DNA from: Pseudorhodoferax aquiterrae
GTDB lineage: Bacteria > Pseudomonadota > Gammaproteobacteria > Burkholderiales > Burkholderiaceae_C
Direction of reading: 5' to 3'
NCBI RefSeq assembly: GCF_014652235.1
Contig: NZ_BMYK01000003.1
Coordinates: 446,547 to 510,546 of the forward strand
Length of the DNA stretch: 64,000 nt
How positions within the stretch are numbered: position 1 is the first letter of the stretch; every line of letters begins with the position of its first letter. Below the pieces are notes generated by a model, which saw only the letters and a program-made list of their open reading frames with translations, made no database searches and was not told where the DNA came from. Positions 50,073 to 63,026 of this stretch are shown in pieces. Both the position numbers and the translations under genes were made by a program.

Positions 50073-50987
50073 ATGGACCAGATCCAGGCGATGCGAACGT
50101 TCACGCGCGTCGTGGAAGCAGGCAGTTTCACCAAGGCGGCAGAGTCGCTGGATGTGCCCAAGGGCACGGTCACCAAGCAGATCCAGGCCTTGGAGACGCG
50201 GCTGCGCGTGCGGCTGCTGAACCGCACGACGCGCCGCGTGACGGTCACGCCCGACGGCGCGGCCTACTACGAACGCACGCTGCGGCTGCTCTCGGACCTG
50301 GACGACATCGAGGCCAGCATGAGCAATGCCCAGGCCCGGCCCAGCGGCCGGCTGCGCGTGGACATCGGCGCCTCGGTGGCGCGGCTGCTCGTGATCCCCG
50401 CGCTGCAGGGCTTCTTCGAGCGCTACCCCGACATCCAACTCGACCTGGGCGTGAGCGACCGGCCGGTGGACCTGATCGCCGACAACGTGGACTGCGTGAT
50501 CCGCGGCGGCGAGCTGACCGAGCAGTCGCTGGTGGCGCGGCGCATCGGCAACATCGACTTCGTGACCGTGGCCTCGCCGGCCTACCTGGCGCGCCACGGC
50601 ACGCCCGCGCATCCGACCGAACTGGAGGCGAACCACACCATGGTCAGCTTCTTCTCCTCGCGCACGGGCCGCCAGTACAACCACTACTTCGAGTGCAACG
50701 GCGAGAGCCATGAGATCACGGGCCGCTACCAGTTGGCCGTGAACGAGAGCAATGCGTTGTCGGAGGCCGCGCTGGCCGGCCTGGGCATCGTGGCGCTGAC
50801 GCGCTTCGACGTGAAGCCGCACCTGGAAAGCGGCGCACTGCTGCAGATCCTGCCGGAGTGGAAGCGCCGCACCCTGCCCTTCTACGTGGTCTACCCGCCC
50901 AACCGCCACCTCTCGGCCAAGGTGCGCGCCTTCGTCGACTGGGCGGCCGAGCTGTTCGCCAAAAACCCTTACATGCAGGTCCGCTGA
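50073..50987 (+). CDS. LysR-family regulator A beside the RND pump
   Basis: A 304-residue LysR regulator (DNA-binding part SFTKAAESLDVPKGTVTKQI, about residues 18-37; effector part with SDRPVDLIADNVDCVIRGGE). It is divergent from the hydrolase-like gene across a 210-base gap and is followed by a near copy of itself. AAGGAAG gives a ribosome site. By place and by comparison with MexT/MexEF-OprN it may control the efflux operon, the hydrolase-like gene, or both. Confidence 0.88.
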   Translation: MDQIQAMRTFTRVVEAGSFTKAAESLDVPKGTVTKQIQALETRLRVRLLNRTTRRVTVTPDGAAYYERTLRLLSDLDDIEASMSNAQARPSGRLRVDIGASVARLLVIPALQGFFERYPDIQLDLGVSDRPVDLIADNVDCVIRGGELTEQSLVARRIGNIDFVTVASPAYLARHGTPAHPTELEANHTMVSFFSSRTGRQYNHYFECNGESHEITGRYQLAVNESNALSEAALAGLGIVALTRFDVKPHLESGALLQILPEWKRRTLPFYVVYPPNRHLSAKVRAFVDWAAELFAKNPYMQVR

Positions 50988-51060: not shown

Positions 51061-51975
51061 ATGGACCAGATCCAGTCCATGCGCATGTTCACGCGCGTCG
51101 TCGAGGCTGGCAGCTTCACCAAGGCGGCCGAGTCGCTCGACATTCCCAAGGGCACCGTCACCAAGCAGATCCAATACCTGGAGGCGCGGCTGCGCGTCAA
51201 GCTGCTCAACCGCACCACGCGCCGCGTGACCGTCACGCCGGACGGCGCGGCCTACTACGAGCGCACCGTGCGCCTGTTGTCGGACTTCGACGACATCGAG
51301 GCCAGCATGAGCAACGCCCAATCCCGCCCGAGCGGACGGCTGCGCGTGGACATCGGCGCCTCGGTCGCGCGGCTGCTCGTGATCCCGCAGCTGCACAGCT
51401 TCTTCGAGCGCTTTCCCGACATCCAGCTGGACCTCGGGGTCAGCGACCGGCCGGTGGACCTGATCGCCGACAACGTGGACTGCGTGATCCGCGGCGGCGA
51501 GCTGACCGAGCAGTCGCTGGTGGCACGGCGCATCGGCGGCGTCGAACTCATCACCGTGGCGACGCCGGACTACCTGGCCCGGCACGGCACGCCGGCCCAT
51601 CCGAACGAGCTGGAAAAGGGACACCGGCTCATCAACTACTTCTCCTCGCGCACCGGGCGGCAGTTTCCGCACCTGTTCCAGCAGGGCGACGAGCACCTGG
51701 AGATCCTGGGTGCCTACCAGCTCGCGGTCAACGAAAGCAATGCGCTGACCACGGCCGTGCTGGCCGGCCTGGGCATCACGCAGGTGGCGCGCTTCGGCCT
51801 GCAGCACCATCTGGACAGCGGCGCGCTGGTGCGCGTGCTGCCCGACTGGGGCCACCCGCCCATCCCGCTGCACGTGGTCTACCCGCCCAACCGCCACCTG
51901 TCGGCCAAGGTGCGCGCCTTCGTGGACTGGGCGACCGAGTTGTTCGCCAAGACGCCCTACCTCCAGGCGCGCTGA
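51061..51975 (+). CDS. LysR-family regulator B beside the RND pump, tandem paralogue
   Basis: A 304-residue LysR protein of exactly the same length as regulator A and, by eye, about three quarters identical. The DNA-recognition helix is nearly the same (SFTKAAESLDIPKGTVTKQI), while the effector pocket differs more (for example NHTMVSFFSSRTGRQYNHYF against GHRLINYFSSRTGRQFPHLF). That pattern suggests similar DNA sites but different ligands. It has its own promoter. Confidence 0.88.
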   Translation: MDQIQSMRMFTRVVEAGSFTKAAESLDIPKGTVTKQIQYLEARLRVKLLNRTTRRVTVTPDGAAYYERTVRLLSDFDDIEASMSNAQSRPSGRLRVDIGASVARLLVIPQLHSFFERFPDIQLDLGVSDRPVDLIADNVDCVIRGGELTEQSLVARRIGGVELITVATPDYLARHGTPAHPNELEKGHRLINYFSSRTGRQFPHLFQQGDEHLEILGAYQLAVNESNALTTAVLAGLGITQVARFGLQHHLDSGALVRVLPDWGHPPIPLHVVYPPNRHLSAKVRAFVDWATELFAKTPYLQAR

Positions 51976-51980
51976 GGGTC

Positions 51981-52016
51981 CTGGACAAAACGTCTACATC
52001 TGGACAAAATATCCAG
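51981..52016 (+). promoter_or_regulatory. Direct-repeat operator/promoter abutting the DauR-type gene
   Basis: CTGGACAAAA occurs at 51981-51990 and again at 52000-52009, 19 bases apart. TGGACA-17-CAAAAT makes a passable sigma70 promoter from these same bases and would start RNA at about the ATG at 52017, a leaderless message. The second copy is also half of a CTGGA-N7-TCCAG dyad ending at the base before the ATG. Autoregulation is likely. Confidence 0.55.
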
Positions 52017-52658
52017 ATGCCGACCACCAAGACGTCCAGAACCGCTGCCCAGCGCGCCCTGCTGGGCCAGCTCGAACACATCGCCCAGGGCCTGGGCGAC
52101 ACCTTCGCGCCGTTCTGCGAGGTCGTGGTGCACGACCTGCTGGACCCGCAGCATGCGATCGCCGCGATCCACAACAACCTGTCGGGCCGCGCCGTCGGCG
52201 ACCCGGCCACCGAGCTGGGCCTGGCCCGCATCGCCGACCCGGCCTACGCGCCGGTGCTGTCCAACTACGCCAACCGTTTCGCCGACGGGCGCCAGGCCAA
52301 GAGCACCTCGATCGGCATCAAGGACGCGGACGGCCGCTACGTCGCGGCGCTGTGCCTGAATGTCGATCTCACGCTGTTCAAGAGCCTGCAGAGCGCCATG
52401 GGCCAGTTCGTGCAGGTCGACGCCCAGGCCACGCCACCCGAATCGCTGGACCCGGCCGGTGCCGACGCGATCCGCGCGCGCATCGACCGCTACGCCGCCG
52501 CGCGCGCGAGCACGCCGCGTGCGCTCAAGGCCGACGAGCGCCGCGCGCTGCTCGCCGAACTCAAGGCCGAAGGCCTGCTGCAGCTGCGCCATGCCATGCA
52601 GACCGTGGCCGCCCATCTGGGCGTCTCGCGCGCCACGGTGTACAGCGATGCGCGGTGA
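52017..52658 (+). CDS. YheO/DauR-type transcriptional regulator (PAS-like plus HTH)
   Basis: A 213-residue regulator. The N-terminal YheO-like PAS domain (GLGDTFAPFCEVVVHDL, then HNNLSGRAVGDPATELG) is followed by a DauR_HTH domain at the C-terminus (AMQTVAAHLGVSRATVYSDA). In Pseudomonas aeruginosa the relative DauR controls D-arginine catabolism genes, and many relatives sit beside D-amino acid or hydroxyamino acid genes. Here it overlaps by 11 bases the start of a reductase gene of the cluster. It probably senses the substrate and controls its own promoter. Confidence 0.88.
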   Translation: MPTTKTSRTAAQRALLGQLEHIAQGLGDTFAPFCEVVVHDLLDPQHAIAAIHNNLSGRAVGDPATELGLARIADPAYAPVLSNYANRFADGRQAKSTSIGIKDADGRYVAALCLNVDLTLFKSLQSAMGQFVQVDAQATPPESLDPAGADAIRARIDRYAAARASTPRALKADERRALLAELKAEGLLQLRHAMQTVAAHLGVSRATVYSDAR

Positions 52659-53604
52659 AGCCCGTTTGCGCCTGCTGGACGGGCCGACCGTCGCGGCGCT
52701 GCTGGAGCCGCAGGCCGTGCGCGCGGCCGTGGAGCAGGCCTTCGCGCTGCACAGCCGGGGCGAGGGCCGCACCTTCCCCGTGGTGCGCGAGCCGCTGGAG
52801 CAGGGCGTGTTCGGCATCAAGTCCGGCGCGGTGCCCAGGCAGGCGCTGCTGGGCTACAAGGCCGCCGGCTTCTGGCCGGGCAACCGCGGCCAGGGCGGCG
52901 AACCGCACCAGGCCACCATCGTGCTGCACGACCCGGCCACGGGCCGGCCGCTCAGCGTGATCGATGGCAACGCCATCACCACGGCGCGCACGGCCGCGGC
53001 CGGCGCCATCGGCCTGCAGCGCCTGGCGCGGCCCGACAGCCGCACGCTGTGCCTGTTCGGCACCGGCGTGCAGGCACGCGCCCACCTGGCCGAGGCGCTG
53101 CGCGTGCTGCCCGCGCTGGAGCAGGTGCGCTACTGCACGCACCGCGGCCAGCCCGACGCAGCCTTCGAGGCCATGTTCGCGGACCGCTGCGCGCTGCAGT
53201 TCGCGCCCGATGCCGATGCCGCCGTGGCCGCCAGCGACGTGGTCGTCACGGCCACGCCCGCGAGCGGCCCACTGTTCGGCCTGGACGCCGTGCGCCCCGG
53301 CACCCATGTCAACGCCGTGGGCGCCGACACGCGCGGCAAACGCGAACTGCCCGAGGGCCTGCTCGCGCGCGCCCTGCTCGTGGTCGACGACCGCACGCAG
53401 GCCCGGGCGCTGGGCGAGGCGCAATGGGCGCCCGACGTGCCGTGCACCGAGATCGGCGCCCTGCCCGCGCTGCCGCGCGCGCCCGATGCCATCACCGTGT
53501 TCGACCTGACCGGGCTGGCGCTGCAGGACCTGGCTGTCGCGCGCCTGGTGCTGGCCCGCGCCGAAGCGCAAGGCCTGGGCCTGGACATCGCCTGGCCCTG
53601 GTAA
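52648..53604 (+). CDS. Ornithine cyclodeaminase/mu-crystallin family protein (iminosuccinate reductase-like)
   Basis: A 318-residue NAD(P)-binding protein. The dinucleotide motif is LCLFGTGVQARAHLAEAL (from residue 134); Lys71 in LLGYKAAGFWPG and Arg114 in ITTARTAAAGAIG are the usual substrate-binding residues. Family members include ornithine cyclodeaminase, alanine dehydrogenase, DauB and BhcD, the iminosuccinate reductase of the beta-hydroxyaspartate cycle. Because the next two genes encode dehydratases that can form iminosuccinate from 3-hydroxyaspartate, BhcD-like reduction to aspartate is the most coherent guess. ATG 52648 lies inside the end of the regulator gene, so the two are coupled. 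Confidence 0.85.
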   Translation: MRGEARLRLLDGPTVAALLEPQAVRAAVEQAFALHSRGEGRTFPVVREPLEQGVFGIKSGAVPRQALLGYKAAGFWPGNRGQGGEPHQATIVLHDPATGRPLSVIDGNAITTARTAAAGAIGLQRLARPDSRTLCLFGTGVQARAHLAEALRVLPALEQVRYCTHRGQPDAAFEAMFADRCALQFAPDADAAVAASDVVVTATPASGPLFGLDAVRPGTHVNAVGADTRGKRELPEGLLARALLVVDDRTQARALGEAQWAPDVPCTEIGALPALPRAPDAITVFDLTGLALQDLAVARLVLARAEAQGLGLDIAWPW

Positions 53605-53634
53605 CCCCTTTCTCCACCCGACCACCGTACCGCC

Positions 53635-54612
53635 ATGAACGACCTGACCCTGCCGACCTACGAAGACGTGGCCGCCGCTGCCCAACGCATCGAAGGCCAT
53701 GCCCACCGCACGCCCGTGATGACTTCGCGCACGCTCAACGAAGCCATCGGCGCCGAGGTGTTCTTCAAGTGCGAGAACCTGCAGCGCATGGGCGCCTTCA
53801 AGTTCCGCGGCGGCTTCAACGCGCTGTCCAGGTTCGACGCGGCCCAGCGCCGCGCCGGCGTCGTGGCCTTCTCCTCGGGCAACCATGCCCAGGCCATCGC
53901 GCTGTCGGCCCGCATCCTGGGGATCCCCGCCACCATCGTGATGCCCAGCGACGCGCCGGCCATGAAGGTCGCCGCCACCCAGGGCTACGGCGCCACCGTG
54001 GTCAGCTACGACCGCTACACCGAGGACCGCGAGCAGATCGGCCGCGACCTCGCGCAAAAGCACGGCCTCACGCTGATCCCGCCTTACGACCATCCCGACG
54101 TGATCGCCGGCCAGGGCACGGCCGCCAAGGAACTCATCGAGGAGGTCGGCCCGCTCGACGCCTTCTACGCGCCGCTGGGCGGCGGCGGCCTGCTGTCGGG
54201 CTCGGCGCTGGCGCTGCGCGCGCTGTCGCCCCAAACCCGCATCGTGGGCGTGGAGCCCGAGGCCGGCAACGACGGCCAGCAGTCTTTCCGCAGCGGGAAG
54301 ATCGTGCACATCGATGTGCCCAAGACCATTGCCGACGGCGCCCAGACCCAGCACCTGGGGAATTACACCTTCGGTGTGATCCGCCGCGACGTGGACGACA
54401 TCCAGACCGCCAGCGACGCCGAGCTCGTGGACGCCATGGCCTTCGCCGCCGCGCGCATGAAGATCGTCGTCGAGCCGACGGGTTGCCTGGGCCTGGCCGC
54501 CGTGCGGCGCGAGGCAAGCGCCCTGCGCGGCCAGCGCATCGGCGTGCTGCTCAGCGGCGGCAACGTGGACCTCGCGCGGCTCTGCGAACTGCTCGGGAAG
54601 CAAGCCGCATGA
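53635..54612 (+). CDS. Serine racemase/threo-3-hydroxyaspartate ammonia-lyase-type PLP dehydratase
   Basis: A 325-residue fold-type II PLP enzyme. The PLP lysine is Lys56 in AFKFRGGFNA, the substrate loop is SSGNHAQAIAL (80-90) and the phosphate-binding loop is LGGGGLLSGS (181-190). Length without an ACT domain separates it from biosynthetic threonine deaminase. It eliminates water from hydroxyamino acids; in this group are serine racemase, catabolic threonine dehydratase, threo-3-hydroxyaspartate ammonia-lyase and BhcB. The neighbours favour 3-hydroxyaspartate. Its stop overlaps the next start as ATGA. Confidence 0.9.
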   Translation: MNDLTLPTYEDVAAAAQRIEGHAHRTPVMTSRTLNEAIGAEVFFKCENLQRMGAFKFRGGFNALSRFDAAQRRAGVVAFSSGNHAQAIALSARILGIPATIVMPSDAPAMKVAATQGYGATVVSYDRYTEDREQIGRDLAQKHGLTLIPPYDHPDVIAGQGTAAKELIEEVGPLDAFYAPLGGGGLLSGSALALRALSPQTRIVGVEPEAGNDGQQSFRSGKIVHIDVPKTIADGAQTQHLGNYTFGVIRRDVDDIQTASDAELVDAMAFAAARMKIVVEPTGCLGLAAVRREASALRGQRIGVLLSGGNVDLARLCELLGKQAA

Positions 54613-55748
54613 ACGCCGCCGACCTTGCGGCGCTGGAGACCCCGCTGCTGCTGCTCGACGAGGCCCGCATGCAGCGCAACATCGCGCGCATGCAGCAGCG
54701 CATGGATGCGCTGGGCGTGCGCTTCCGTCCGCACGCCAAGACCAGCAAGTGCGCCGCCGTCGTGCAGCGCCAGATCGCGGCCGGCGCCCAGGGCATCACG
54801 GTCTCCACGCTCAAGGAGGCCGAGCAGTTCTTCGCGGCCGGCATCGACGACATCCTCTACGCCGTGGCCATCGTGCCATCCAAGTTCGACCACGCGCTGC
54901 GCCTGGTGCGCGCGGGCTGCCGGCTCACGCTGCTGGTCGAGTCGGTCGCGGCGGCCGAGCAGCTGGCCGCGCACGGCCGGGCCAACGGCCACCGCCACCG
55001 CGTGCTGATCGAAGTGGACACCGACGGCCACCGCAGCGGCATCCCGCCCGAGGACGCGCGCCTGCTGGCCGTGGCTGCCGCGCTGGTGGACGATGGCGCC
55101 GAGCTGGCCGGCGTGCTGACCCATGCCGGCAGTTCCTACAGTCTGAACACGCCCGAGGCCCTGGAGGCCATGGCCGAACAGGAGCGTGCCGGCTGCGTGC
55201 GCGCGGCCCAGCGGCTGCGCGCGGCCGGCCACGCCTGCCCCGTGGTCAGCGTAGGCTCCACGCCCACTGCGCTGCACGCGCGCCGGCTGGAGGGCGTGAC
55301 CGAGGTGCGCGCCGGCGTCTACGTGTTCTTCGACCTCGTGATGGCCGGCATCGGCGTTTGCGGCGTGGACGAGATTGCGTTGTCGGTGCTGGCCACCGTG
55401 ATCGGCCACCGGCCCGAGGCCGGTTGGGTCATCACCGACGCGGGCTGGATGGCCATGAGCCGCGACCGTGGCACGGCCCGGCAGGCCCAGGACCACGGCT
55501 ACGGCCTCGTCGCCGACGTCCAGGGCCGGGCCATCGCCGAGCTCAGCTTCGGCGAGGCCAACCAGGAGCATGGCGTGCTGCAGTGGCGCGGCGCGGCGGG
55601 CGCCGAGCTCGAGCGACTCTTTCCGCTCGGCAGCCAGCTGCGCATCTATCCCAACCATGCCTGCGCGACCGGGGCGCAGCATCCGGCCTACCAGGTGCTG
55701 GCCGCCGACGGCACGCTGGCCTGCTGGCCGCGCTTCAGCGGCTGGTAG
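54609..55748 (+). CDS. Fold-type III PLP enzyme: D-threo-3-hydroxyaspartate/D-serine dehydratase-like
   Basis: A 379-residue alanine-racemase-N-domain enzyme. The PLP lysine is Lys44 in RFRPHAKTSKC. The C-terminal metal site reads PNHACAT, His350-x-Cys352. D-threonine aldolases and the beta-hydroxyaspartate aldolase BhcC have His-x-Asp here; vertebrate D-serine dehydratase and the Delftia D-threo-3-hydroxyaspartate dehydratase have His-x-Cys. I therefore prefer a metal-dependent dehydratase to an aldolase. It would give iminosuccinate/oxaloacetate plus ammonia from D-3-hydroxyaspartate, or pyruvate from D-serine. The ATG overlaps the previous stop. Confidence 0.88.
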   Translation: MNAADLAALETPLLLLDEARMQRNIARMQQRMDALGVRFRPHAKTSKCAAVVQRQIAAGAQGITVSTLKEAEQFFAAGIDDILYAVAIVPSKFDHALRLVRAGCRLTLLVESVAAAEQLAAHGRANGHRHRVLIEVDTDGHRSGIPPEDARLLAVAAALVDDGAELAGVLTHAGSSYSLNTPEALEAMAEQERAGCVRAAQRLRAAGHACPVVSVGSTPTALHARRLEGVTEVRAGVYVFFDLVMAGIGVCGVDEIALSVLATVIGHRPEAGWVITDAGWMAMSRDRGTARQAQDHGYGLVADVQGRAIAELSFGEANQEHGVLQWRGAAGAELERLFPLGSQLRIYPNHACATGAQHPAYQVLAADGTLACWPRFSGW

Positions 55749-55840
55749 CCCCGCCGCAGGCCGGATTGTTCGGGGCGGCCCCACAATGGCGGCTCGACGG
55801 GCTGCGCCCCCGCCACGCAAGCGCACCAGAAAGGACCACC

Positions 55841-56086
55841 ATGACCACCGTGCAGATCACCTTGCCCGATCAACTCGCGCAGGAAGCACAGCGTGCCGGC
55901 CTGCTGTCGCCAGCGCGGCTGGAGCAGTGGTTGCGCGACCAGTTGGCGGACCAGCGCGTGGAGGAGCTCTTCTCGGCCATGGACCGCATGGCCGGTGTCG
56001 ATGAACCCGCAGCGATGGCCCCCGAGGATCTGGCCCGGGAGATCGCCACCATGCGCGCGGAGCGACGCACCGACAACGCGCATTGA
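55841..56086 (+). CDS. Putative antitoxin of a PIN-domain toxin-antitoxin pair
   Basis: An 81-residue acidic-tailed protein. The N-terminal strand TTVQITLPDQLAQEAQRAG is like the DNA-binding part of small ribbon-helix-helix or AbrB-like antitoxins, and the rest (LEQWLRDQLADQRVEELFSA) is a helix that could wrap the toxin. It is 12 bases before a PIN-domain gene. AAGGA precedes the ATG. No family name is certain. Confidence 0.7.
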   Translation: MTTVQITLPDQLAQEAQRAGLLSPARLEQWLRDQLADQRVEELFSAMDRMAGVDEPAAMAPEDLAREIATMRAERRTDNAH

Positions 56087-56098
56087 CCAGGCCATGCC

Positions 56099-56515
56099 AT
56101 GCGGCTGGTCCTGGACACCAATGTGGTCGCCTCCGCGATCCTCTGGGGCGGCACACCGCGCCAGGTGCTGCAGGCCGCGCGGGACAAGCGCGTGCGGCTG
56201 TTCACCAGCACGGCGCTGCTGGCAGAACTCACCGACATCCTTGGGCGGCGCAAGTTCGATCGCAAGATCGCCGCATCCGGCTTGACCGTCGACCAGATCG
56301 TGGACGGCTACGTGGCGCTGGCGACGCCTATGCGGCCCGCGCCGACACCGCGCATCGCGCCCGACCCGGACGATGATGTGGTCGTGGGCACCGCACTGGC
56401 CGCCCGGGCGGATGGCATCGTCACCGGCGACAAGGCCTTGCTGTCGGTCGCTGCGTACCAGGGCGTCCGGATCATCGGTGTGGCCGAGGCCGTGCAGCTG
56501 ATCGGCGCCGTTTGA
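56099..56515 (+). CDS. PIN-domain toxin (COG1569 type)
   Basis: A 138-residue PIN nuclease. The acidic metal-site residues are all visible: Asp6 in LVLDTNVVAS, Glu in LLAELTDILG, the DPDDDVVVGTA cluster and Asp in VTGDKALL. Such toxins cut RNA in the cytoplasm when free of their antitoxin. It follows the putative antitoxin gene and faces the glutaminase gene tail to tail with a 20-base gap. Confidence 0.85.
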   Translation: MRLVLDTNVVASAILWGGTPRQVLQAARDKRVRLFTSTALLAELTDILGRRKFDRKIAASGLTVDQIVDGYVALATPMRPAPTPRIAPDPDDDVVVGTALAARADGIVTGDKALLSVAAYQGVRIIGVAEAVQLIGAV

Positions 56516-56535: not shown

Positions 56536-57468
56536 TCAAAACACCGACAAGCCGGTCCGCCCCACGAACATCTCCAGCGCCTGCCGCCCCAGGGCCGAGT
56601 TGCCCGTCGCGTCCAGCGCGGGCGACCAGACCACCAGCGTGAGCCGGTCCGGCACCACGGCCACGATGCCGCCGCCCACGCCGCTCTTGCAGGGCAGGCC
56701 GATGCGGTAGGCGAACTCGCCGGCCGCGTCGTAGGTGCCGCAGGTCAGCATCAGCGCGTTGATGCGGCGCGTCTGGCGCTCGGTGCAGACGGCGCGCCCG
56801 GCCCACAGCGGGTGGTGGCCGTCGCGGCTCAGGTAGGCCGCAGCGCGCGCCAGCTGCAGGCAGCTCATGCGCAGCGCGCACTGGTGGAAGTACAGGTCCA
56901 GCACCTCTTCGACCGGGTTGTCGAGCTTGCCGAAGCTCTTCATGAAGTTGGCCAGCGCGAGGTTGCGGAAACCCGTGGCGGCTTCGGAAGCCGCTACCTC
57001 TTCGTCGAAGGCGACCGGTTCGCCCGCCAGCGCCGCCATGAGCGCCAGCAGCTCGGCCTTGGCCCGGCCGCCGAACAGCGTGACCAGCCGGTCGGCCACG
57101 GCGATGGCGCCGGCATTGATGAAGGGGTTGCGCGGCCGGCCCTGCTCGAACTCCAGCTGCACCAGCGAGTTGAAGGCCGTGCCCGAAGGCTCGCGGCCGA
57201 TGCGCTCCCACAGCGTCTCGCCCAGGTGCTGCATTGCCAGGGTCAAGGTGAACACCTTGGAGATGCTCTGGATCGAGAACGGCAGCGCGCCATCGCCGGC
57301 CACGGCCTCCTGGCCATCGGCCGTGACCAGCGCCATGCCGAAGTGCCGCGCGTCGATGCGGGCCAGTGCCGGGATGTAGCTGGCGACCTGGCCTTCGGCG
57401 CCACGGAACTCGGCCAGCGCTGCCAGGATCCCGTCCAGCACGGGCTGCAGCGGCGGGCAGGCGCTCAC
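56536..57468 (-). CDS. glsA: Glutaminase A
   Basis: A 310-residue serine-dependent beta-lactamase-fold glutaminase that converts glutamine to glutamate and ammonia in the cytoplasm. The catalytic pair is Ser68-x-x-Lys71 in SIQSISKVFTL, and NPFINAGAIAV, GFRNLALANFMKSFG and CGTYDAAGEFAYRIGLPCKS are the family motifs. Usual length. Its ATG overlaps the stop of the small gene 57465-57761 (ATGA), so the two are translated together. Confidence 0.94.
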   Translation of the reverse strand: MSACPPLQPVLDGILAALAEFRGAEGQVASYIPALARIDARHFGMALVTADGQEAVAGDGALPFSIQSISKVFTLTLAMQHLGETLWERIGREPSGTAFNSLVQLEFEQGRPRNPFINAGAIAVADRLVTLFGGRAKAELLALMAALAGEPVAFDEEVAASEAATGFRNLALANFMKSFGKLDNPVEEVLDLYFHQCALRMSCLQLARAAAYLSRDGHHPLWAGRAVCTERQTRRINALMLTCGTYDAAGEFAYRIGLPCKSGVGGGIVAVVPDRLTLVVWSPALDATGNSALGRQALEMFVGRTGLSVF

Positions 57469-57880: not shown

Positions 57881-58087
57881 TCAGCGCAAGGGCTTGAGCA
57901 GGTGGCGCAGCCCGTTGTGGTCGATCTCCAGCATCAGCGCCAGCAGGCGGCCGAGCTCGCCCTTGGGAAAGCCTTCGCGCGCGAACCAGGCCAGGTAGTT
58001 GCCGGGCAGGTCCGCGATCACGCGGCCCTTGTAGCGGCCATAGGGCATGGCGAGTGTGGTCAGGCGTTGCAGATCTTCGGGAGTCAT
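57881..58087 (-). CDS. DUF3820 family protein
   Basis: A 68-residue protein with the DUF3820 pattern: LAMPYGRYKGRVIADLPGNY followed by LAWFAREGFPKGELGRLLAL. Family members are small, of unknown function, sometimes listed as quorum-sensing-regulated virulence factors. ATG 58087 (MTPEDLQRL) fits the family length; the frame is open 19 codons further up. It is divergent from mprF and ends near a T7 stretch (minus strand) without a strong stem. Confidence 0.8.
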   Translation of the reverse strand: MTPEDLQRLTTLAMPYGRYKGRVIADLPGNYLAWFAREGFPKGELGRLLALMLEIDHNGLRHLLKPLR

Positions 58088-58162
58088 GGGGCGTGTCGCG
58101 GGCCGGCGCAGGCGGAACCTTACAGCGCCCCGGCGCAAAGGCACACAGACGCTGGGGCCTTG

Positions 58163-58197
58163 CGCGCGCCGGGCTCCCCGGCGCGCGTGGCTATAGT
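58163..58197 (+). promoter_or_regulatory. mprF promoter region: 11-bp hairpin and TATAGT
   Basis: CGCGCGCCGGG-CTC-CCCGGCGCGCG is a perfect 11-bp inverted repeat at 58163-58187. TATAGT follows at 58192-58197, 15 bases before the mprF ATG, and no Shine-Dalgarno is present, so the leader would be about nine bases. The dyad covers the place of a -35 element, which fits an operator for a repressor or an activator. Confidence 0.45.
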
Positions 58198-58212
58198 GTT
58201 TTTCGAACTTCC

Positions 58213-60834
58213 ATGCCGAACTCCGCGAACACCGCGCCGCCGCCCCACCTCGCCGAGCAGGCCGGCCCGCGACCGCCGGCGCCCTGGCTGCGCGACGCGC
58301 TGCAACGCTGGCAGCCCTGGGTGATCGGTGCCACCGCGGCCCTGCTGATCCTGCTGGTGGGCATCGCCTTGCACGGCCTGCTGCGCGAGGTGCGCTACGC
58401 CGAGATCATGCACGCCGTGCACGGCACGCCGCCGCTGCAGGTGCTGCTGGGCCTGGCCTTCACGGCCGCGAGCTACCTCGCACTGTCGGGCTACGACGCC
58501 TCGGCACTGGCCTACGCCCAGGCCAAGGTGGCGCGCGGCATGCTGCTGCTGACGTCCTTCGTGGCCTATGCGCTGGGCAACACCATCGGCCTGGGCACGC
58601 TGACCGGCGGCGCCGTGCGCATGCGCCTGTTCGCGGCCGCCGGCGTGGAACCGGCCAAGATCGCCCAGGTCGTGGCCTTCAACGCGAGCGCCTTCCTGCT
58701 CGGCATGTCGGTGTTCGGTGCGCTTGCACTGTTGTGGGGCGCGCCCGACGTGGCGCGGTTGCTGCACCTTCCGGCCGGGGTGCTGCGCGGGGCGGCCGCC
58801 GCGCTGCTGGCCGGCGTGGCCGCGCTGCTGTGGCTGTGCGGGCGCCAGCGCGTGCTGTGCATCGCGCGCCGCTGGACATTGCGCCTTCCGCCGCTGGGCC
58901 TGGCCCTGCGCCAGCTGGCGATCTCGGCTGTGGAACTGGGTGCCTCGGCGCTGGCGCTCTGGGTGCTGCTGCCCGCATCGGACCTGCCGCTGCCCACCTT
59001 CCTGGCCTTCTACGCCATCGCCATCAGCGCCAGCCTGCTGAGCCATGTGCCGGGCGGCATCGGCGTGTTCGAGGCCGTGATGCTGCTGGCCAGCGGCCCC
59101 TACCTGCCGACCGAGACCATGCTGGGCGCGCTGCTGCTGTACCGCGCGCTGTACTACGTGTTGCCGCTGGTGCTGGCCACGGCGCTGCTGGCCGGCTTCG
59201 AGCTGCGCGCCGGCGTGGGTGCCCAGGTCGGCCGCGCGGCCGCGCGGCTGGGCCCGCGCCTGCTGGCCGCACTGACGCTGGTGGCCGGCCTGTGGCTGCT
59301 GGTCTCGGGCGTCACGCCGTTCACCGAGGACAGCCAGCTGCTGCTGGAATCGCTGAACGTGCCGCTGCCGCTGGTGGAGACCGCGCACTTTCTGGGCAGC
59401 GTGGCGGGCCTGGGCCTGCTGCTGGTCGCGCGCGGGCTCCTGCACCGGCTCGACGCAGCCTGGTGGGCGGCGCTGGCGCTGTCCGTCGTGGCCGGGCTGC
59501 TGGCCCTGCCCAAGGGCATCGCCTGGGGCGAGGCCGCGCTGCTCTGCACGCTGGCACTGCTGCTGGTGCTTTCGCGCCGGCAGTTCGACCGGCCCTCCTC
59601 GCTGTTCGCGCAGCGGCTGGAGCCGGGCTGGCTGCTGGCCGTGGGCGGCGTGCTGGCGGCCTGCGTCTGGATCCTGTTCTTCGCCTACCAGGAGGTGGCC
59701 TACAGCAACCGGCTGTGGTGGCAGTTCGAGCTCGATGCACAGGCGCCGCGCTCGCTGCGCGCGCTGCTGGGTGTGGCCCTGGGCGCGCTGGCCATCGGCC
59801 TGTGGCAGCTGATGCGCCCGCCGGCCGGCGCCGTGGCGCCGCCCACGCGCGAGGAGATCGAGCGCGCCGCCGCCATCGTGCGCGCCAGCCCCAGCGCGGC
59901 CGGCTGCTTCGCGCTGGTCGGCGACAAGAACCTGATGTTCTCGCCTTCGGGCAAGAGCTTCATCATGTACGGCAAGCAGGGCCGCTCCTGGGTCGCACTG
60001 TTCGGACCCATCGGCGAGCGCCGGGAGTGGGCCGACCTGGTCTGGCGCTTCATCGAGCATGCCAACGCGCATGGCGGGCGGCCGGCCTTCTACCAGGTGC
60101 GCCCGTCCATGCTGCCGCTGTTCCTGGACTGCGGGCTGCAGGCCTTCAAGCTCGGCGAGTACGCCCATGTGCCGCTGCCCGAGTTCAACCTCAAGGGCGC
60201 CAAGCGCGCCAACCTGCGCTCGGGCGTGAACCGCGGCGAGCGCGAGGGCCTGGTGTTCGAGGTGGTGCCGGCCGAGGGCGTGCCGCCGCTGCTGGCCGAG
60301 TTGCGCGCCGTCTCCGACGCCTGGCTGCGCAAGCAGAGTGCGCGCGAGAAGAACTTCTCCGTCGGCCGCTTCGACGAGGCCTACCTGGCCCGCCTGCCCG
60401 TGGCCGTGGTGCGGCGCGAGGGCCGGATCATCGCCTTCGCCAACCTGCTGGTCACAGGCCAGAAGGAAGAGGCCAGCATCGACCTCATGCGCTATGTGCC
60501 CGACGCCCCGCCCGGCACCATGGACTACCTGTTCGCCAAGACCATGCTGCACCTGCAGGCCGAGGGCTACCAGCGCTTCGGCCTGGGCATGGCGCCCATG
60601 GCCGGCATGGCCGAGCGCCGGCAGGCGCCACGCTGGCAGCGCATCGGGCGGCTGCTGTTCGAGCATGGCGAGCGCTTCTACAACTTCCGCGGCCTGCACA
60701 GCTTCAAGGACAAGTTCGAGCCCGTGTGGGACGCGCGCTACCTGGCCGCGCCGGGCGGGCTGGAGCCCGTGCTGGTGCTGGCCGATGTCGCCACGCTGAT
60801 CGGCGGTGGCGTGAAAGGCGTGGTCTCCAAATGA
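58213..60834 (+). CDS. mprF: MprF: aminoacyl-phosphatidylglycerol synthase/flippase
   Basis: An 873-residue inner-membrane protein. The N-terminal 540 residues have about 14 hydrophobic segments (UPF0104-type flippase), with ISASLLSHVPGGIGVFEAVM as a mark. The C-terminal 330 residues are the DUF2156 acyltransferase domain (PSGKSFIMYGKQGRSWVALF and DLMRYVPDAPPGTMDYLFAK). It transfers lysine or alanine from tRNA to phosphatidylglycerol and flips the product outward, which lowers the negative surface charge and gives resistance to cationic peptides. Which amino acid is used cannot be told. It overlaps the next gene (ATGA), a probable hydrolase for its product. Confidence 0.93.
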   Translation: MPNSANTAPPPHLAEQAGPRPPAPWLRDALQRWQPWVIGATAALLILLVGIALHGLLREVRYAEIMHAVHGTPPLQVLLGLAFTAASYLALSGYDASALAYAQAKVARGMLLLTSFVAYALGNTIGLGTLTGGAVRMRLFAAAGVEPAKIAQVVAFNASAFLLGMSVFGALALLWGAPDVARLLHLPAGVLRGAAAALLAGVAALLWLCGRQRVLCIARRWTLRLPPLGLALRQLAISAVELGASALALWVLLPASDLPLPTFLAFYAIAISASLLSHVPGGIGVFEAVMLLASGPYLPTETMLGALLLYRALYYVLPLVLATALLAGFELRAGVGAQVGRAAARLGPRLLAALTLVAGLWLLVSGVTPFTEDSQLLLESLNVPLPLVETAHFLGSVAGLGLLLVARGLLHRLDAAWWAALALSVVAGLLALPKGIAWGEAALLCTLALLLVLSRRQFDRPSSLFAQRLEPGWLLAVGGVLAACVWILFFAYQEVAYSNRLWWQFELDAQAPRSLRALLGVALGALAIGLWQLMRPPAGAVAPPTREEIERAAAIVRASPSAAGCFALVGDKNLMFSPSGKSFIMYGKQGRSWVALFGPIGERREWADLVWRFIEHANAHGGRPAFYQVRPSMLPLFLDCGLQAFKLGEYAHVPLPEFNLKGAKRANLRSGVNRGEREGLVFEVVPAEGVPPLLAELRAVSDAWLRKQSAREKNFSVGRFDEAYLARLPVAVVRREGRIIAFANLLVTGQKEEASIDLMRYVPDAPPGTMDYLFAKTMLHLQAEGYQRFGLGMAPMAGMAERRQAPRWQRIGRLLFEHGERFYNFRGLHSFKDKFEPVWDARYLAAPGGLEPVLVLADVATLIGGGVKGVVSK

Positions 60835-62165
60835 AAACGGCACTGGCGCTCGCGCTGTCGCTCGCTACCGGCGCAGCCGGCGCCCAGACCCTACCGCCCG
60901 TGCAGAGCATCACGCATGGCCTGTTCGAGCGCGTGCAGGTGCATGCGCCCGCCGGGCCGGTGCGCCAGTTCGCCTTGCTGCTGGTCGAGGGCACCGCCGC
61001 GTCGCCGCAGGAGCAGGCCATGCGCAGCCGCCTGCTGTCCGGGGGCGCCATGGTGGCCGAAGTGTCCATGGCCGCCTACCAGGCCAAGGTGCGCGCGCAG
61101 AAAGAGAAGTGCGGCTACGCGGGCGGCGACTTCGAGAACCTCGCGCGCCACATCCAGGCCATGCGCAAGCTGCCGGCCTACTTCGAGAGCACCGTGGTCG
61201 GCGCGGGCGACTACGCGGCCTACGCCTGGGGCCTGGTCGCGCAGGCGCCCGCCGGCTCCTTCGGCGCGCTGCTGACCGCGGGCTTTTGCCCGCGGCTCGT
61301 GGTGCAGCCGCCGCTGTGTGCGGTCAACCAACTCAGCTGGCGCGTGGCGGGCCAGGGACCGGCCGTGGACATGGCGCCCGTGGCCCTCGGCATCCCGTGG
61401 ATGGCGGCGCCCGGCACCGCCCCGGCCGCCTGCGATGCGGGCGCGGCCCAGGCCTTCGTCGCCCAGGTGCCGCAGGCGCAGGTGCAACCCAGCTTCGAGG
61501 CGGCCGCGGCCGCCCTCGCCGCGAAGCGCCCGGCGCTCGAGGCGGCGCCCGCCCAACTGGCCGACCTCCCCGTGGTCGAGGTGCCCAGCAAGGCGCCCGG
61601 AACACGCTTCGCGGTGCTGCTGTCGGGCGATGGCGGATGGGCCGGCATCGACAAGGACATCGCCGCCGAACTCGCGCGCCAGGGCGTGCCCGTGGCCGGC
61701 TTCGACTCGCTGCGCTACTTCTGGAGCAAGCGCACGCCCGAGGGCCTCGCGGCCGACCTGGACCGGCTGGTGCGCTACTACGCCGCGCGCTGGCAGCGCA
61801 GCGAGGTGATCCTGATCGGCTTCTCCCAAGGCGCCGACGTGCTGCCCTTCGCGCTGAACCGCCTGCCCGAGCGCACGCGTGCGGCGGTGCGCCTGTCGGT
61901 GCTGCTGGCCCCCGCCGAGAAGGCCTCGTTCGAGTTCCACGTCAGCAACTGGCTGGGCCCCAGCGGCGACAAGCCCGTGCTGCCCGAGGCGCAGAAGCTG
62001 CAGGCCGCGCGCACGCTGTGCGTGCACGGCAGCGAGGAGAAACGCTCGCTGTGCCCGCAGCTCTCGCCCGCGCAGGCCCAGGTGGTCACGATCAAGGGCA
62101 ACCACCACTTCGACGGCGATTACGTGGGCCTGGCGCACCGCATCCTGCGCGCGGCCGGGCCCTGA
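60831..62165 (+). CDS. virJ: VirJ/AcvB-type periplasmic hydrolase
   Basis: A 444-residue exported protein: signal peptide ALALALSLATGAAGA, then a VirJ-like domain without catalytic serine (about 25-210) and a second one with the nucleophile elbow LIGFSQGADVLPFA, acid and base in the last quarter (VTIKGNHHFDGDY). LLSGDGGWAGIDKDIA is a family mark. In Agrobacterium AcvB hydrolyses lysyl-phosphatidylglycerol made by the MprF homologue LpiA. The ATGA overlap with mprF gives the same synthase-hydrolase pair here. Confidence 0.9.
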   Translation: MKTALALALSLATGAAGAQTLPPVQSITHGLFERVQVHAPAGPVRQFALLLVEGTAASPQEQAMRSRLLSGGAMVAEVSMAAYQAKVRAQKEKCGYAGGDFENLARHIQAMRKLPAYFESTVVGAGDYAAYAWGLVAQAPAGSFGALLTAGFCPRLVVQPPLCAVNQLSWRVAGQGPAVDMAPVALGIPWMAAPGTAPAACDAGAAQAFVAQVPQAQVQPSFEAAAAALAAKRPALEAAPAQLADLPVVEVPSKAPGTRFAVLLSGDGGWAGIDKDIAAELARQGVPVAGFDSLRYFWSKRTPEGLAADLDRLVRYYAARWQRSEVILIGFSQGADVLPFALNRLPERTRAAVRLSVLLAPAEKASFEFHVSNWLGPSGDKPVLPEAQKLQAARTLCVHGSEEKRSLCPQLSPAQAQVVTIKGNHHFDGDYVGLAHRILRAAGP

Positions 62166-62168
62166 CCC

Positions 62169-63026
62169 TCAGCGGCGCAGCGTGCGGTCCAGGAACGCGA
62201 GCAGGCGCGCCGTCACCTCGTCGCGGTTGGTCTCGTTGAGCAGCTCGTGCCGCGCCTGCGAATACAGCACGACCTCCACGTCGTGCACGCCCGCATCGCG
62301 GTAACGCTGACCGACCAGCTGCACGGCCGCACCGCCGGGCCCGGCGATCGGATCGGCATCGCCCGACAGCAGCAGGATGGGCAGATCCTTGCGCACGCGT
62401 GCGAGTTCTGCCGGGTCCGCCGCCCACGCCAGCGTCTGCAAGCCCTGGAACGGCTCGGGCACGAAGCCGCAGGCCGGGTCGGCGCAGTACTTGTCGACCT
62501 CGACCGCGTCGCGGCTCAGCCACTCGAAACCCGTGCGGTGCTCGAAGCCCTGGTTCAGCGAACTCAGGTCCACCGGGCCCTCGGCGCTCAGCATGGCGGC
62601 GATGCCGGCCGGCTCGCTGGTGCCCAGCAGCACGGCGGCCTGCACAGCGTCCGAATGGTCGAGCAGGAACTGCTGCGTGGCGAACGAGCCCATGCTGTGC
62701 CCGACCAGGCCCAGCGCCAGGGCCGGGTGTTCGGTGCGGATGTGCTGGTTCAGCTGCCAGACGTCGTCGACCCAGCCGGGCCAGCCATCGCGGCCCCAGC
62801 GGCCGTAGGCGCCAGCCGCGCTGCGCCCGGAGCCCCGCCCGTCCGGCGCGTAGACCACGTAGCCCGCGGCGGTCAGCGCTTCGCCGAAGCGGCGGTAGCG
62901 GCCCGCATGCTCGCCCAGGCCGTGCTGCAGCTGCACGGCAGCGCGCGGCGCGCCCGCGGGCGCCCAGCGCCAGGTCTGCAGCGCGATGCCGTCGCGCGTC
63001 TGGATGGTGATGGTGCTTTCCTGCAT
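62169..63026 (-). CDS. Monoacylglycerol lipase-like alpha/beta hydrolase (serine hydrolase)
   Basis: A 285-residue cytoplasmic hydrolase of the Hydrolase_4 group. The oxyanion region is LQHGLGEHAGRYRRFGEALT, the nucleophile elbow GLVGHSMGSFATQQF, the acid in LLSGDADPIAG, and the histidine in YSQARHELLNE. LLNETNRDEV with the base is typical of the YtpA/PldB-like lysophospholipase and monoglyceride lipase branch. It meets virJ tail to tail with three bases between, and is 27 bases after the Bug gene on its own strand, with a good AAGGAG ribosome site. Confidence 0.88.
   Translation of the reverse strand: MQESTITIQTRDGIALQTWRWAPAGAPRAAVQLQHGLGEHAGRYRRFGEALTAAGYVVYAPDGRGSGRSAAGAYGRWGRDGWPGWVDDVWQLNQHIRTEHPALALGLVGHSMGSFATQQFLLDHSDAVQAAVLLGTSEPAGIAAMLSAEGPVDLSSLNQGFEHRTGFEWLSRDAVEVDKYCADPACGFVPEPFQGLQTLAWAADPAELARVRKDLPILLLSGDADPIAGPGGAAVQLVGQRYRDAGVHDVEVVLYSQARHELLNETNRDEVTARLLAFLDRTLRR

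What the first reader, a model, noticed from the sequence alone, without database searches (positions are those of the whole stretch)
52017..55748. Candidate 3-hydroxyaspartate utilisation cluster, related to but not the beta-hydroxyaspartate cycle
Four tightly packed genes: YheO/DauR-type regulator, ornithine-cyclodeaminase-family reductase, serine-racemase-type dehydratase, and a fold-type III PLP enzyme with the dehydratase-type HxC metal motif. Three of the enzyme families are those of BhcD, BhcB and BhcC of the beta-hydroxyaspartate cycle, but the third has the metal ligand of a dehydratase and not of the aldolase, and no aspartate-glyoxylate aminotransferase (BhcA) is near. The logical pathway is: L- and D-isomers of 3-hydroxyaspartate are each dehydrated to iminosuccinate, and the reductase saves the nitrogen as aspartate before it hydrolyses to oxaloacetate and ammonia. 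I know of no described cluster with exactly this set and this regulator.
Basis: partly seen in the sequence, partly recalled or inferred. Interest (0 to 1): 0.72.

Follow-up and report, generated by a model that had tools for sequence, protein, structure and literature searches.

The report
Hydroxyaspartate-to-aspartate operon with own regulator
Four neighbouring bacterial genes very probably turn the unusual amino acid 3-hydroxyaspartate into ordinary aspartate without losing its nitrogen, under one dedicated regulator; the same set recurs, with exchangeable parts, in many related bacteria.

Summary
The four genes are real and conserved: REG (YheO/DauR-type regulator), OCD (ornithine-cyclodeaminase-family reductase), SRY (passes NCBI's threo-3-hydroxy-L-aspartate ammonia-lyase model) and DTH (66% identical to the crystallised Delftia D-threo-3-hydroxyaspartate dehydratase, same His/Cys metal ligands). 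SRY, DTH and OCD fall below NCBI's cut-offs for beta-hydroxyaspartate-cycle enzymes. Of the 80 OCD loci kept from 234, 72 have REG, 38 SRY and 26 DTH nearby; 25 others carry a threonine-synthase-like enzyme (C4), never together with SRY. Among 250 family genomes all 11 with OCD also have DTH (32 of 250). A 15-bp dyad operator, learned from REG promoters, also precedes OCD and SRY where these are separate and lies between divergent REG and C4. Its strict form occurs in the window's 7.1-Mb genome only as a tandem pair over the REG promoter; in genome G099 the single hit led to REG and C4. Best reading: dehydratases turn 3-hydroxyaspartate into iminosuccinate and OCD reduces it to aspartate; the dehydratases probably divide the isomers by C3 configuration, not by L/D. 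OCD's substrate, the inducer and the role are inferred. The logic resembles dauBAR and EutBC: a new variant of a known kind.

The parts
51982..51996 (.). left operator copy TGGACAAAACGTCTA, holds the -35-like TGGACA
   Evidence: one of only two strict matches in the 7.1-Mb genome; 19 bp from the right copy, a spacing seen in 43 of the 60 REG upstream regions that have a second site above score 5
52001..52015 (.). right operator copy TGGACAAAATATCCA, holds the -10-like CAAAAT and ends one base before the REG start codon
   Evidence: best motif score in the window
51982..52010 (+). sigma-70-like promoter TGGACA-17-CAAAAT inside the operator pair
   Evidence: the only promoter-like site in 51700-56200 (mean 0.1 in shuffles); a consensus match, not proof
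52017..52658 (+). REG: YheO/DauR-type regulator (PAS_6 + HTH_22), 213 aa
   Evidence: the only PF08348 match at E <= 1e-5 in the genome
52648..53604 (+). OCD: ornithine cyclodeaminase/mu-crystallin family reductase, predicted iminosuccinate reductase, 318 aa
53635..54612 (+). SRY: serine-racemase-type fold-II PLP enzyme, predicted 3-hydroxyaspartate dehydratase for 3S isomers, 325 aa
   Evidence: NF005454 578.8 bits (cut-off 452); 213 of 318 residues identical to S. pombe protein 1v71
54609..55748 (+). DTH: fold-III PLP enzyme with HxC metal site, D-threo-3-hydroxyaspartate dehydratase type, 379 aa
   Evidence: 248 of 374 residues identical to Delftia 3wqc; H350 and C352 conserved

Best explanation
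The operon converts stereoisomers of 3-hydroxyaspartate into L-aspartate by dehydration plus reduction. SRY (3S isomers) and DTH (3R isomers) remove water and give the same unstable imine, iminosuccinate. OCD reduces it with NAD(P)H before it can hydrolyse to oxaloacetate and ammonia, so both carbon and nitrogen are kept. REG is an autoregulator: two operator copies 19 bp apart cover the -35 and -10 boxes of a promoter that ends at its own start codon, so REG most likely represses the operon until hydroxyaspartate or a product releases it. Supported by comparison: enzyme families, metal ligands, gene linkage, conserved operator. Inferred: OCD substrate, isomer division, that REG binds the operator and represses, inducer, nutritional role.
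For: Nearest solved relatives: D-threo-3-hydroxyaspartate dehydratase for DTH and iminosuccinate reductase 6rqa for OCD (155 bits, alanine dehydrogenase 134). SRY passes NF005454. BhcD is the top NCBI model for OCD (207 bits, next 156). OCD shares FPV[VI]R, WPxN and HQ with the 11 of 12 BhcD rows that aligned; the EutC-type rows and the genome's two other OCD proteins lack WPxN and HQ. 73 of 80 OCD loci have at least one PLP enzyme of the SRY (38), DTH (26) or C4 (25) type. All 11 OCD genomes of 250 (one OCD copy has a stop) also have DTH, which 32 have (P 2.7e-11 if genomes were independent). A motif trained on 72 REG upstream regions gives 123 sites in 1.12 Mb, 71 at REG; 21 at OCD and 4 at SRY are outside the training. 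Control: 1 site in 365 kb of 23 DTH loci without OCD. The strict motif has one hit in genome G099, which led to REG and C4, 1.8 Mb from its OCD-DTH pair. Genome G467, of another family, has REG, SRY, DTH and a diverged OCD that groups with BhcD.
Confidence: 0.72

Rival explanations
1. Serine or D-serine salvage: the two PLP enzymes dehydrate L- and D-serine (or racemise it), and OCD reduces 2-iminopropionate to alanine.
For: The enzyme families include serine racemase and D-serine dehydratase, and archaeal alanine dehydrogenase is the tied best fold match of OCD.
Against: DTH scores 515 bits with the hydroxyaspartate enzyme and 196 with D-serine dehydratase, and its SRDR segment is shared with the former and not the latter. 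SRY passes the hydroxyaspartate model. OCD has BhcD motifs that alanine dehydrogenase lacks.
Confidence: 0.12
2. Detoxification rather than feeding: the same chemistry, kept to remove hydroxyaspartate or its reactive enamine.
For: A tight operon with its own operator and no transporter seen beside it; RidA-type genes stand beside DTH in other loci, and Rid proteins are imine deaminases (title and one passage of PMC5619798).
Against: Two dehydratases and a nitrogen-saving reductase are more than removal needs; a relative has an asparaginase beside OCD, and three loci have what I read as a DctA/GltP-type transporter gene (not confirmed by a family search).
Confidence: 0.1
3. OCD acts on another imine, and SRY and DTH send hydroxyaspartate to oxaloacetate and ammonia on their own.
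For: OCD is only 33-38% identical to the BhcD proteins and below their cut-off; the DTH locus nearest the characterised Delftia enzyme has no OCD.
Against: Shared operator, operon and genome co-occurrence; SRY and C4 replace each other beside the same OCD.
Confidence: 0.06

Closest known systems
Beta-hydroxyaspartate cycle (BhcABCD, Paracoccus)
   Same: A BhcB-type dehydratase and a BhcD-type reductase act in the same order on iminosuccinate; the families match three of its four enzymes.
   Different: No aldolase: the fold-III enzyme has the dehydratase HxC site. SRY, OCD and DTH score 358/550, 207/500 and 110/690 bits against the BhcB, BhcD and BhcC cut-offs. The regulator is YheO/DauR-type; BhcR is IclR-type (passages of PMC11323563).
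D-threo-3-hydroxyaspartate dehydratase, Delftia sp. HT23
   Same: DTH is 66% identical over 374 residues and keeps the metal ligands.
   Different: In genome G219 (unnamed) the 96.5% identical gene overlaps a RidA gene, with no OCD, SRY or REG in the 17.1 kb read. A named Delftia record (PS-11, L069) does have DTH-REG-OCD-SRY, its DTH 59% identical to the window's.
dauBAR of Pseudomonas aeruginosa
   Same: Same regulator family (PF08348 + PF13309) with a PF02423 enzyme, DauB, and an imine-forming enzyme (table passage of PMC7789669).
   Different: The imine is made by a flavin D-arginine dehydrogenase, not by PLP dehydratases; PMC5619798 (one passage) writes DauB's reaction as 2-ketoarginine to L-arginine.
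EutB/EutC of hydroxyectoine catabolism
   Same: Fold-II dehydratase plus OCD-family reductase, proposed to remove a hydroxyl group (passage of PMC5924519).
   Different: EutC is a separate clade (label confirmed for 4 of its 8 rows), the substrate is cyclic, and I know of no fold-III dehydratase or YheO regulator in it (recalled).

Membership tests
beta-hydroxyaspartate cycle | BhcC, a 3-hydroxyaspartate aldolase | tested here: not met
   DTH 110 bits, cut-off 690; HxC ligands; best gene of the genome 382 of 690; its nearest solved relative is a D-threonine aldolase (319 bits; BhcC 6qkb 294).
beta-hydroxyaspartate cycle | BhcB and BhcD equivalogs | tested here: not met
   SRY 358 of 550, OCD 207 of 500. 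Genome-wide: no BhcB match over cut-off, SRY best; the one BhcD match at E <= 1e-50 is OCD.
beta-hydroxyaspartate cycle | BhcA aspartate-glyoxylate aminotransferase | not tested
   None among the ten neighbouring ORFs scanned; no genome-wide search made.
beta-hydroxyaspartate cycle | IclR-type regulator BhcR | tested here: not met
   REG is PF08348 + PF13309; BhcR is IclR-type (passages of PMC11323563).
D-threo-3-hydroxyaspartate dehydratase (DTH) | sequence closest to the Delftia enzyme, His and Cys metal ligands | tested here: met
   248 of 374 identical; H350 and C352.
D-threo-3-hydroxyaspartate dehydratase (DTH) | activity on D-threo- and L-erythro-3-hydroxyaspartate | not testable with these tools
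   Needs enzyme assay.
threo-3-hydroxy-L-aspartate ammonia-lyase (SRY) | NF005454 curated cut-off | tested here: met
   578.8 bits, cut-off 452.
iminosuccinate reductase (OCD) | OCD/mu-crystallin fold | tested here: met
iminosuccinate reductase (OCD) | specificity for iminosuccinate over other imines | tested here: inconclusive
   Motifs shared with BhcD and BhcD the top model, but fold ties with alanine dehydrogenase, below cut-off, and the score is matched by other OCD types.
DauR/YheO regulators | PAS_6 plus HTH_22 domains | tested here: met
   118.8 and 62.6 bits, above both cut-offs.

The most novel reading that the evidence does not exclude
A patchy but widespread regulon for salvaging iminosuccinate: one reductase subfamily, distinct from BhcD, and one YheO-type regulator with a tandem 15-bp operator are constant, while the water-removing enzyme is exchanged among three types: serine-racemase-like (SRY), alanine-racemase-fold (DTH), and a threonine-synthase-like enzyme (C4) that would be an undescribed 3-hydroxyaspartate dehydratase. 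A likely natural source is the beta-hydroxyaspartate of Burkholderiales siderophores such as cupriachelin, which holds both L-threo and L-erythro residues and so calls for both C3 specificities.
Probability: 0.45. Interest if true: 0.72.

Novelty: new variant of a known kind. Interest (0 to 1): 0.6.

Why it matters
As far as my searches show, 3-hydroxyaspartate dehydratases have been described one by one, without a pathway or a regulator around them. Here they fall into one regulon with a reductase that would keep the nitrogen, outside the known cycle. The operator gives a cheap, exact test of who belongs to it; the set predicts a new dehydratase (C4) whose nearest named models are threonine synthases; and it suggests how bacteria may recycle siderophore building blocks.

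Tried and rejected
Considered and set aside: a hidden beta-hydroxyaspartate cycle. The second fold-III gene of the genome (contig C12) is D-threonine-aldolase-like, with HCD in place of HAC, and has no SRY, OCD or REG match in the 17 kb read. Fold comparison could not separate iminosuccinate reductase from alanine dehydrogenase. The two LysR genes upstream were seen at this place only in the nearest relatives (L033, L066, L067, L071) and are not taken as part of the system. A second operator-like site in G467 lies inside a YggS-like gene (my reading) and looks like chance. DTH mostly lacks the operator just upstream (2 of 26), so I do not claim it for the regulon in every species. OCD orthologues are rare at order level (3 of 300 genomes at E <= 1e-75, this genome included). 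RidA and OCD never share a neighbourhood in 31 DTH loci, but that is thin (P 0.04 without correction for kinship) and RidA does lie in 5 of 80 OCD loci.

Selections: the OCD tree holds 48 rows chosen from about 113 available; alignment A5 holds the window and 30 of the 80 loci; A1 lost its row L048, whose OCD frame holds a stop; one BhcD row (L154) did not align and is left out of the motif count.

Literature: ten searches of an open-access library; no listing that I saw names this set. Four listings were cut (20 of 25, 40 of 53, 10 of 593, 8 of 11 papers), papers were seen as listings or passages only, and subscription papers are missing, so that is weak evidence.
Full report
WHERE IT IS. The window lies in a 7.1-Mb genome (contig C3). 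The records with the most similar cluster are named Pseudorhodoferax (Leaf265, P. soli; Leaf267 further off) and, one, Variovorax boronicumulans DE0202, so a comamonad close to Pseudorhodoferax is likely. The four genes read in one direction with almost no gaps: REG 52017-52658, OCD 52648-53604, SRY 53635-54612, DTH 54609-55748. My first DTH calls began at 54612 and so lack the first Met; residue numbers here are for the full 379-aa protein.

WHAT THE PROTEINS ARE. REG has the YheO-type PAS domain and HTH_22 and is the only PF08348 match of the genome. OCD is PF02423; its best solved relative is iminosuccinate reductase 6rqa (155 bits), then archaeal alanine dehydrogenase (134 bits), and its top NCBI model is BhcD (207 bits, next 156). 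SRY passes the NCBI model for threo-3-hydroxy-L-aspartate ammonia-lyase (579 bits, cut-off 452) and matches the S. pombe protein 1v71 at 213 of 318 residues. DTH matches Delftia D-threo-3-hydroxyaspartate dehydratase at 248 of 374 residues (515 bits), against 196 bits for D-serine dehydratase, 104-110 for three D-threonine aldolases and 86 for the 3-hydroxyaspartate aldolase. Two PDB variants of the Delftia enzyme have Ala at the His or the Cys that aligns with H350 and C352, which marks these as the pair that its authors mutated.

NOT THE BETA-HYDROXYASPARTATE CYCLE. Against the NCBI models SRY scores 358 of 550 for BhcB, OCD 207 of 500 for BhcD and DTH 110 of 690 for BhcC. No gene of the genome passes the BhcC or BhcB cut-off. 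BhcA was not searched for. In 299 genomes of the phylum, 12 have BhcD over its cut-off; in the locus fetched for each, 12 of 12, it stands beside BhcC- and BhcB-like genes. In a tree of 48 chosen rows OCD forms its own clade (22 rows, support 100/99), apart from BhcD (9 rows) and EutC (8 rows; 4 of these checked against the EutC model, all over its cut-off).

STEREOCHEMISTRY. From passages of PMC8071972: the Delftia enzyme degrades D-threo (2R,3R) and L-erythro 3-hydroxyaspartate, and the title of its structure paper calls it useful for making L-threo and D-erythro, i.e. the isomers it leaves. A Pseudomonas enzyme (N99), 35% identical to mouse serine racemase, acts on D-erythro. By configuration rules the Delftia type takes the 3R pair and the SRY type the 3S pair, so DTH and SRY together would cover all four isomers. 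This is my inference; from recall, the first Delftia report also listed some activity on L-threo and D-serine, which would blur the division.

CONSERVED SYNTENY. One scan of the named genome collection with an OCD alignment gave 376 stretches and 234 relatives; the best 80 were kept and studied. Of these 80, 72 have REG, 38 SRY and 26 DTH within about 7 kb; 16 have all four. My labels cover 29 genera or MAG groups, Variovorax alone giving 18 loci. C4, a threonine-synthase-like PLP enzyme, is in 25 loci; two C4 proteins tested are below the cut-offs of all 25 NCBI models listed, the nearest being threonine synthases. C4 and SRY never occur together (0 of 80; about 12 expected; P 7e-10 if loci were independent, which they are not). 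In total 73 of 80 loci have at least one of SRY, DTH and C4. In 250 genomes of the family, DTH is in 32 (E <= 1e-40) and OCD in 11 (E <= 1e-60; the copy in G150 has an internal stop). All 11 are among the 32, also where the two genes are far apart; they fall in 7 genera. At order level OCD is rare (3 of 300).

INDEPENDENT ASSEMBLY. In genome G467 (same class, another family) REG, SRY (73%) and DTH (50%) stand with an OCD only 36% identical to the window's. Its top NCBI model is also BhcD (228 of 500), and it groups with BhcD in the tree (96/87, with a warning of long branches). A different iminosuccinate-reductase-like protein in the same set is what the proposed reaction would predict.

THE OPERATOR. 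Upstream of REG lie two copies of a 15-bp dyad, TGGACAAAACGTCTA (51982) and TGGACAAAATATCCA (52001), starting 19 bp apart; they hold the only promoter-like pair of the region, TGGACA-17-CAAAAT, and end one base before the REG start. A weight matrix was trained on the best site of 72 REG upstream regions, including the window: consensus TGGATAAATTATCCA; 65 of 72 score above the 99th percentile of shuffles and 61 of 72 above that of random 150-mers of the loci. These REG figures are not held out. The training used one site each, so the 19-bp spacing (43 of 60 regions with a second site above 5; 11 of 60 at 37 bp) is an independent regularity. Over all 80 loci (1.12 Mb) at score 13 it gives 123 sites, by nearest start 71 at REG, 21 at OCD, 14 at C4, 4 at SRY, 3 at RidA, and 10 elsewhere. 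The C4 sites are mostly in the gap between divergent REG and C4 and so mostly the same as the REG training sites; OCD and SRY sites are the true test. By locus: REG 62 of 72, C4 21 of 25, OCD 21 of 80, SRY 3 of 38, DTH 2 of 26, RidA 2 of 5; many of the other OCD and SRY genes directly follow REG. Control: 1 site in 364,548 bp of 23 DTH loci without OCD.

GENOME-WIDE TEST. The strict pattern TDGAYAAWWYRTCYA was searched in eight whole genomes; five have a match. In the window's genome it occurs twice, both at the REG promoter, reversed control 0. In G099 it occurs once in 4.5 Mb, and that place, fetched afterwards, lies between divergent C4 and REG, 1.8 Mb from the OCD-DTH pair of the same genome, which has a variant site of its own. 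Against: G232, G020 and G601 gave no strict match (the first two have variant sites at REG; none above threshold in the G601 locus). Of two places in G467 one is before SRY and one inside a YggS-like gene, and the reversed control gave one hit there.

REDUCE OR HYDROLYSE. In 31 DTH loci of the family, 8 have OCD within 3.5 kb, 9 have RidA, none has both, 14 neither. The locus with the gene nearest the Delftia enzyme (96.5% identity, genome G219) has RidA overlapping DTH. I read this as two ways to treat the same imine: hydrolysis to oxaloacetate and ammonia, or reduction to aspartate. The count is small (P 0.04) and 5 of 80 OCD loci do have a RidA. One RidA-type protein was confirmed as PF01042.

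POSSIBLE SOURCE. Cupriachelin of Cupriavidus necator holds both L-threo and L-erythro beta-hydroxyaspartate (passages of PMC10484230). One OCD locus has an asparaginase next to OCD (PF00710), which could feed in hydroxyasparagine. Neither link was tested.

Noticed in passing
window 50073-50987 and 51061-51975: Two LysR-type regulators in tandem, 78% identical, directly upstream of the operon; seen at this place only in the nearest relatives.
   Followed up: partly
window 55841-56515: A small ORF without a Pfam match followed by a PIN-domain gene (TIGR00305, PF13470); looks like a toxin-antitoxin pair next to the operon.
   Followed up: no
window 56536-57468, - strand: Glutaminase gene (NF002133, 443.7 bits) facing the operon; may be linked by nitrogen metabolism or by chance.
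   Followed up: no
L080:7973-9121, L106:11178-12311 and 23 other loci: C4, a threonine-synthase-like PLP enzyme, takes the place of SRY beside OCD/REG; 21 of 25 have an operator site within 200 bp upstream, mostly shared with REG. Predicted new hydroxyaspartate dehydratase.
   Followed up: partly
L108, L111, L130 (Cupriavidus): DTH genes 75-77% identical to the Delftia enzyme follow a TctC receptor and an M81/MlrC-like metallopeptidase gene; MlrC-like genes also stand near OCD in L075 and L086.
   Followed up: no
L087, L100, L119, L129, L136, L141 (Cupriavidus and Ralstonia): REG-OCD-SRY follows what look like nitrate assimilation genes (my reading of sequences, no family search).
   Followed up: no
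window 58054-60834 and 61109-62239: A lysyl-phosphatidylglycerol synthase-type gene (PF09924) followed by an ORF without a Pfam match.
   Followed up: no
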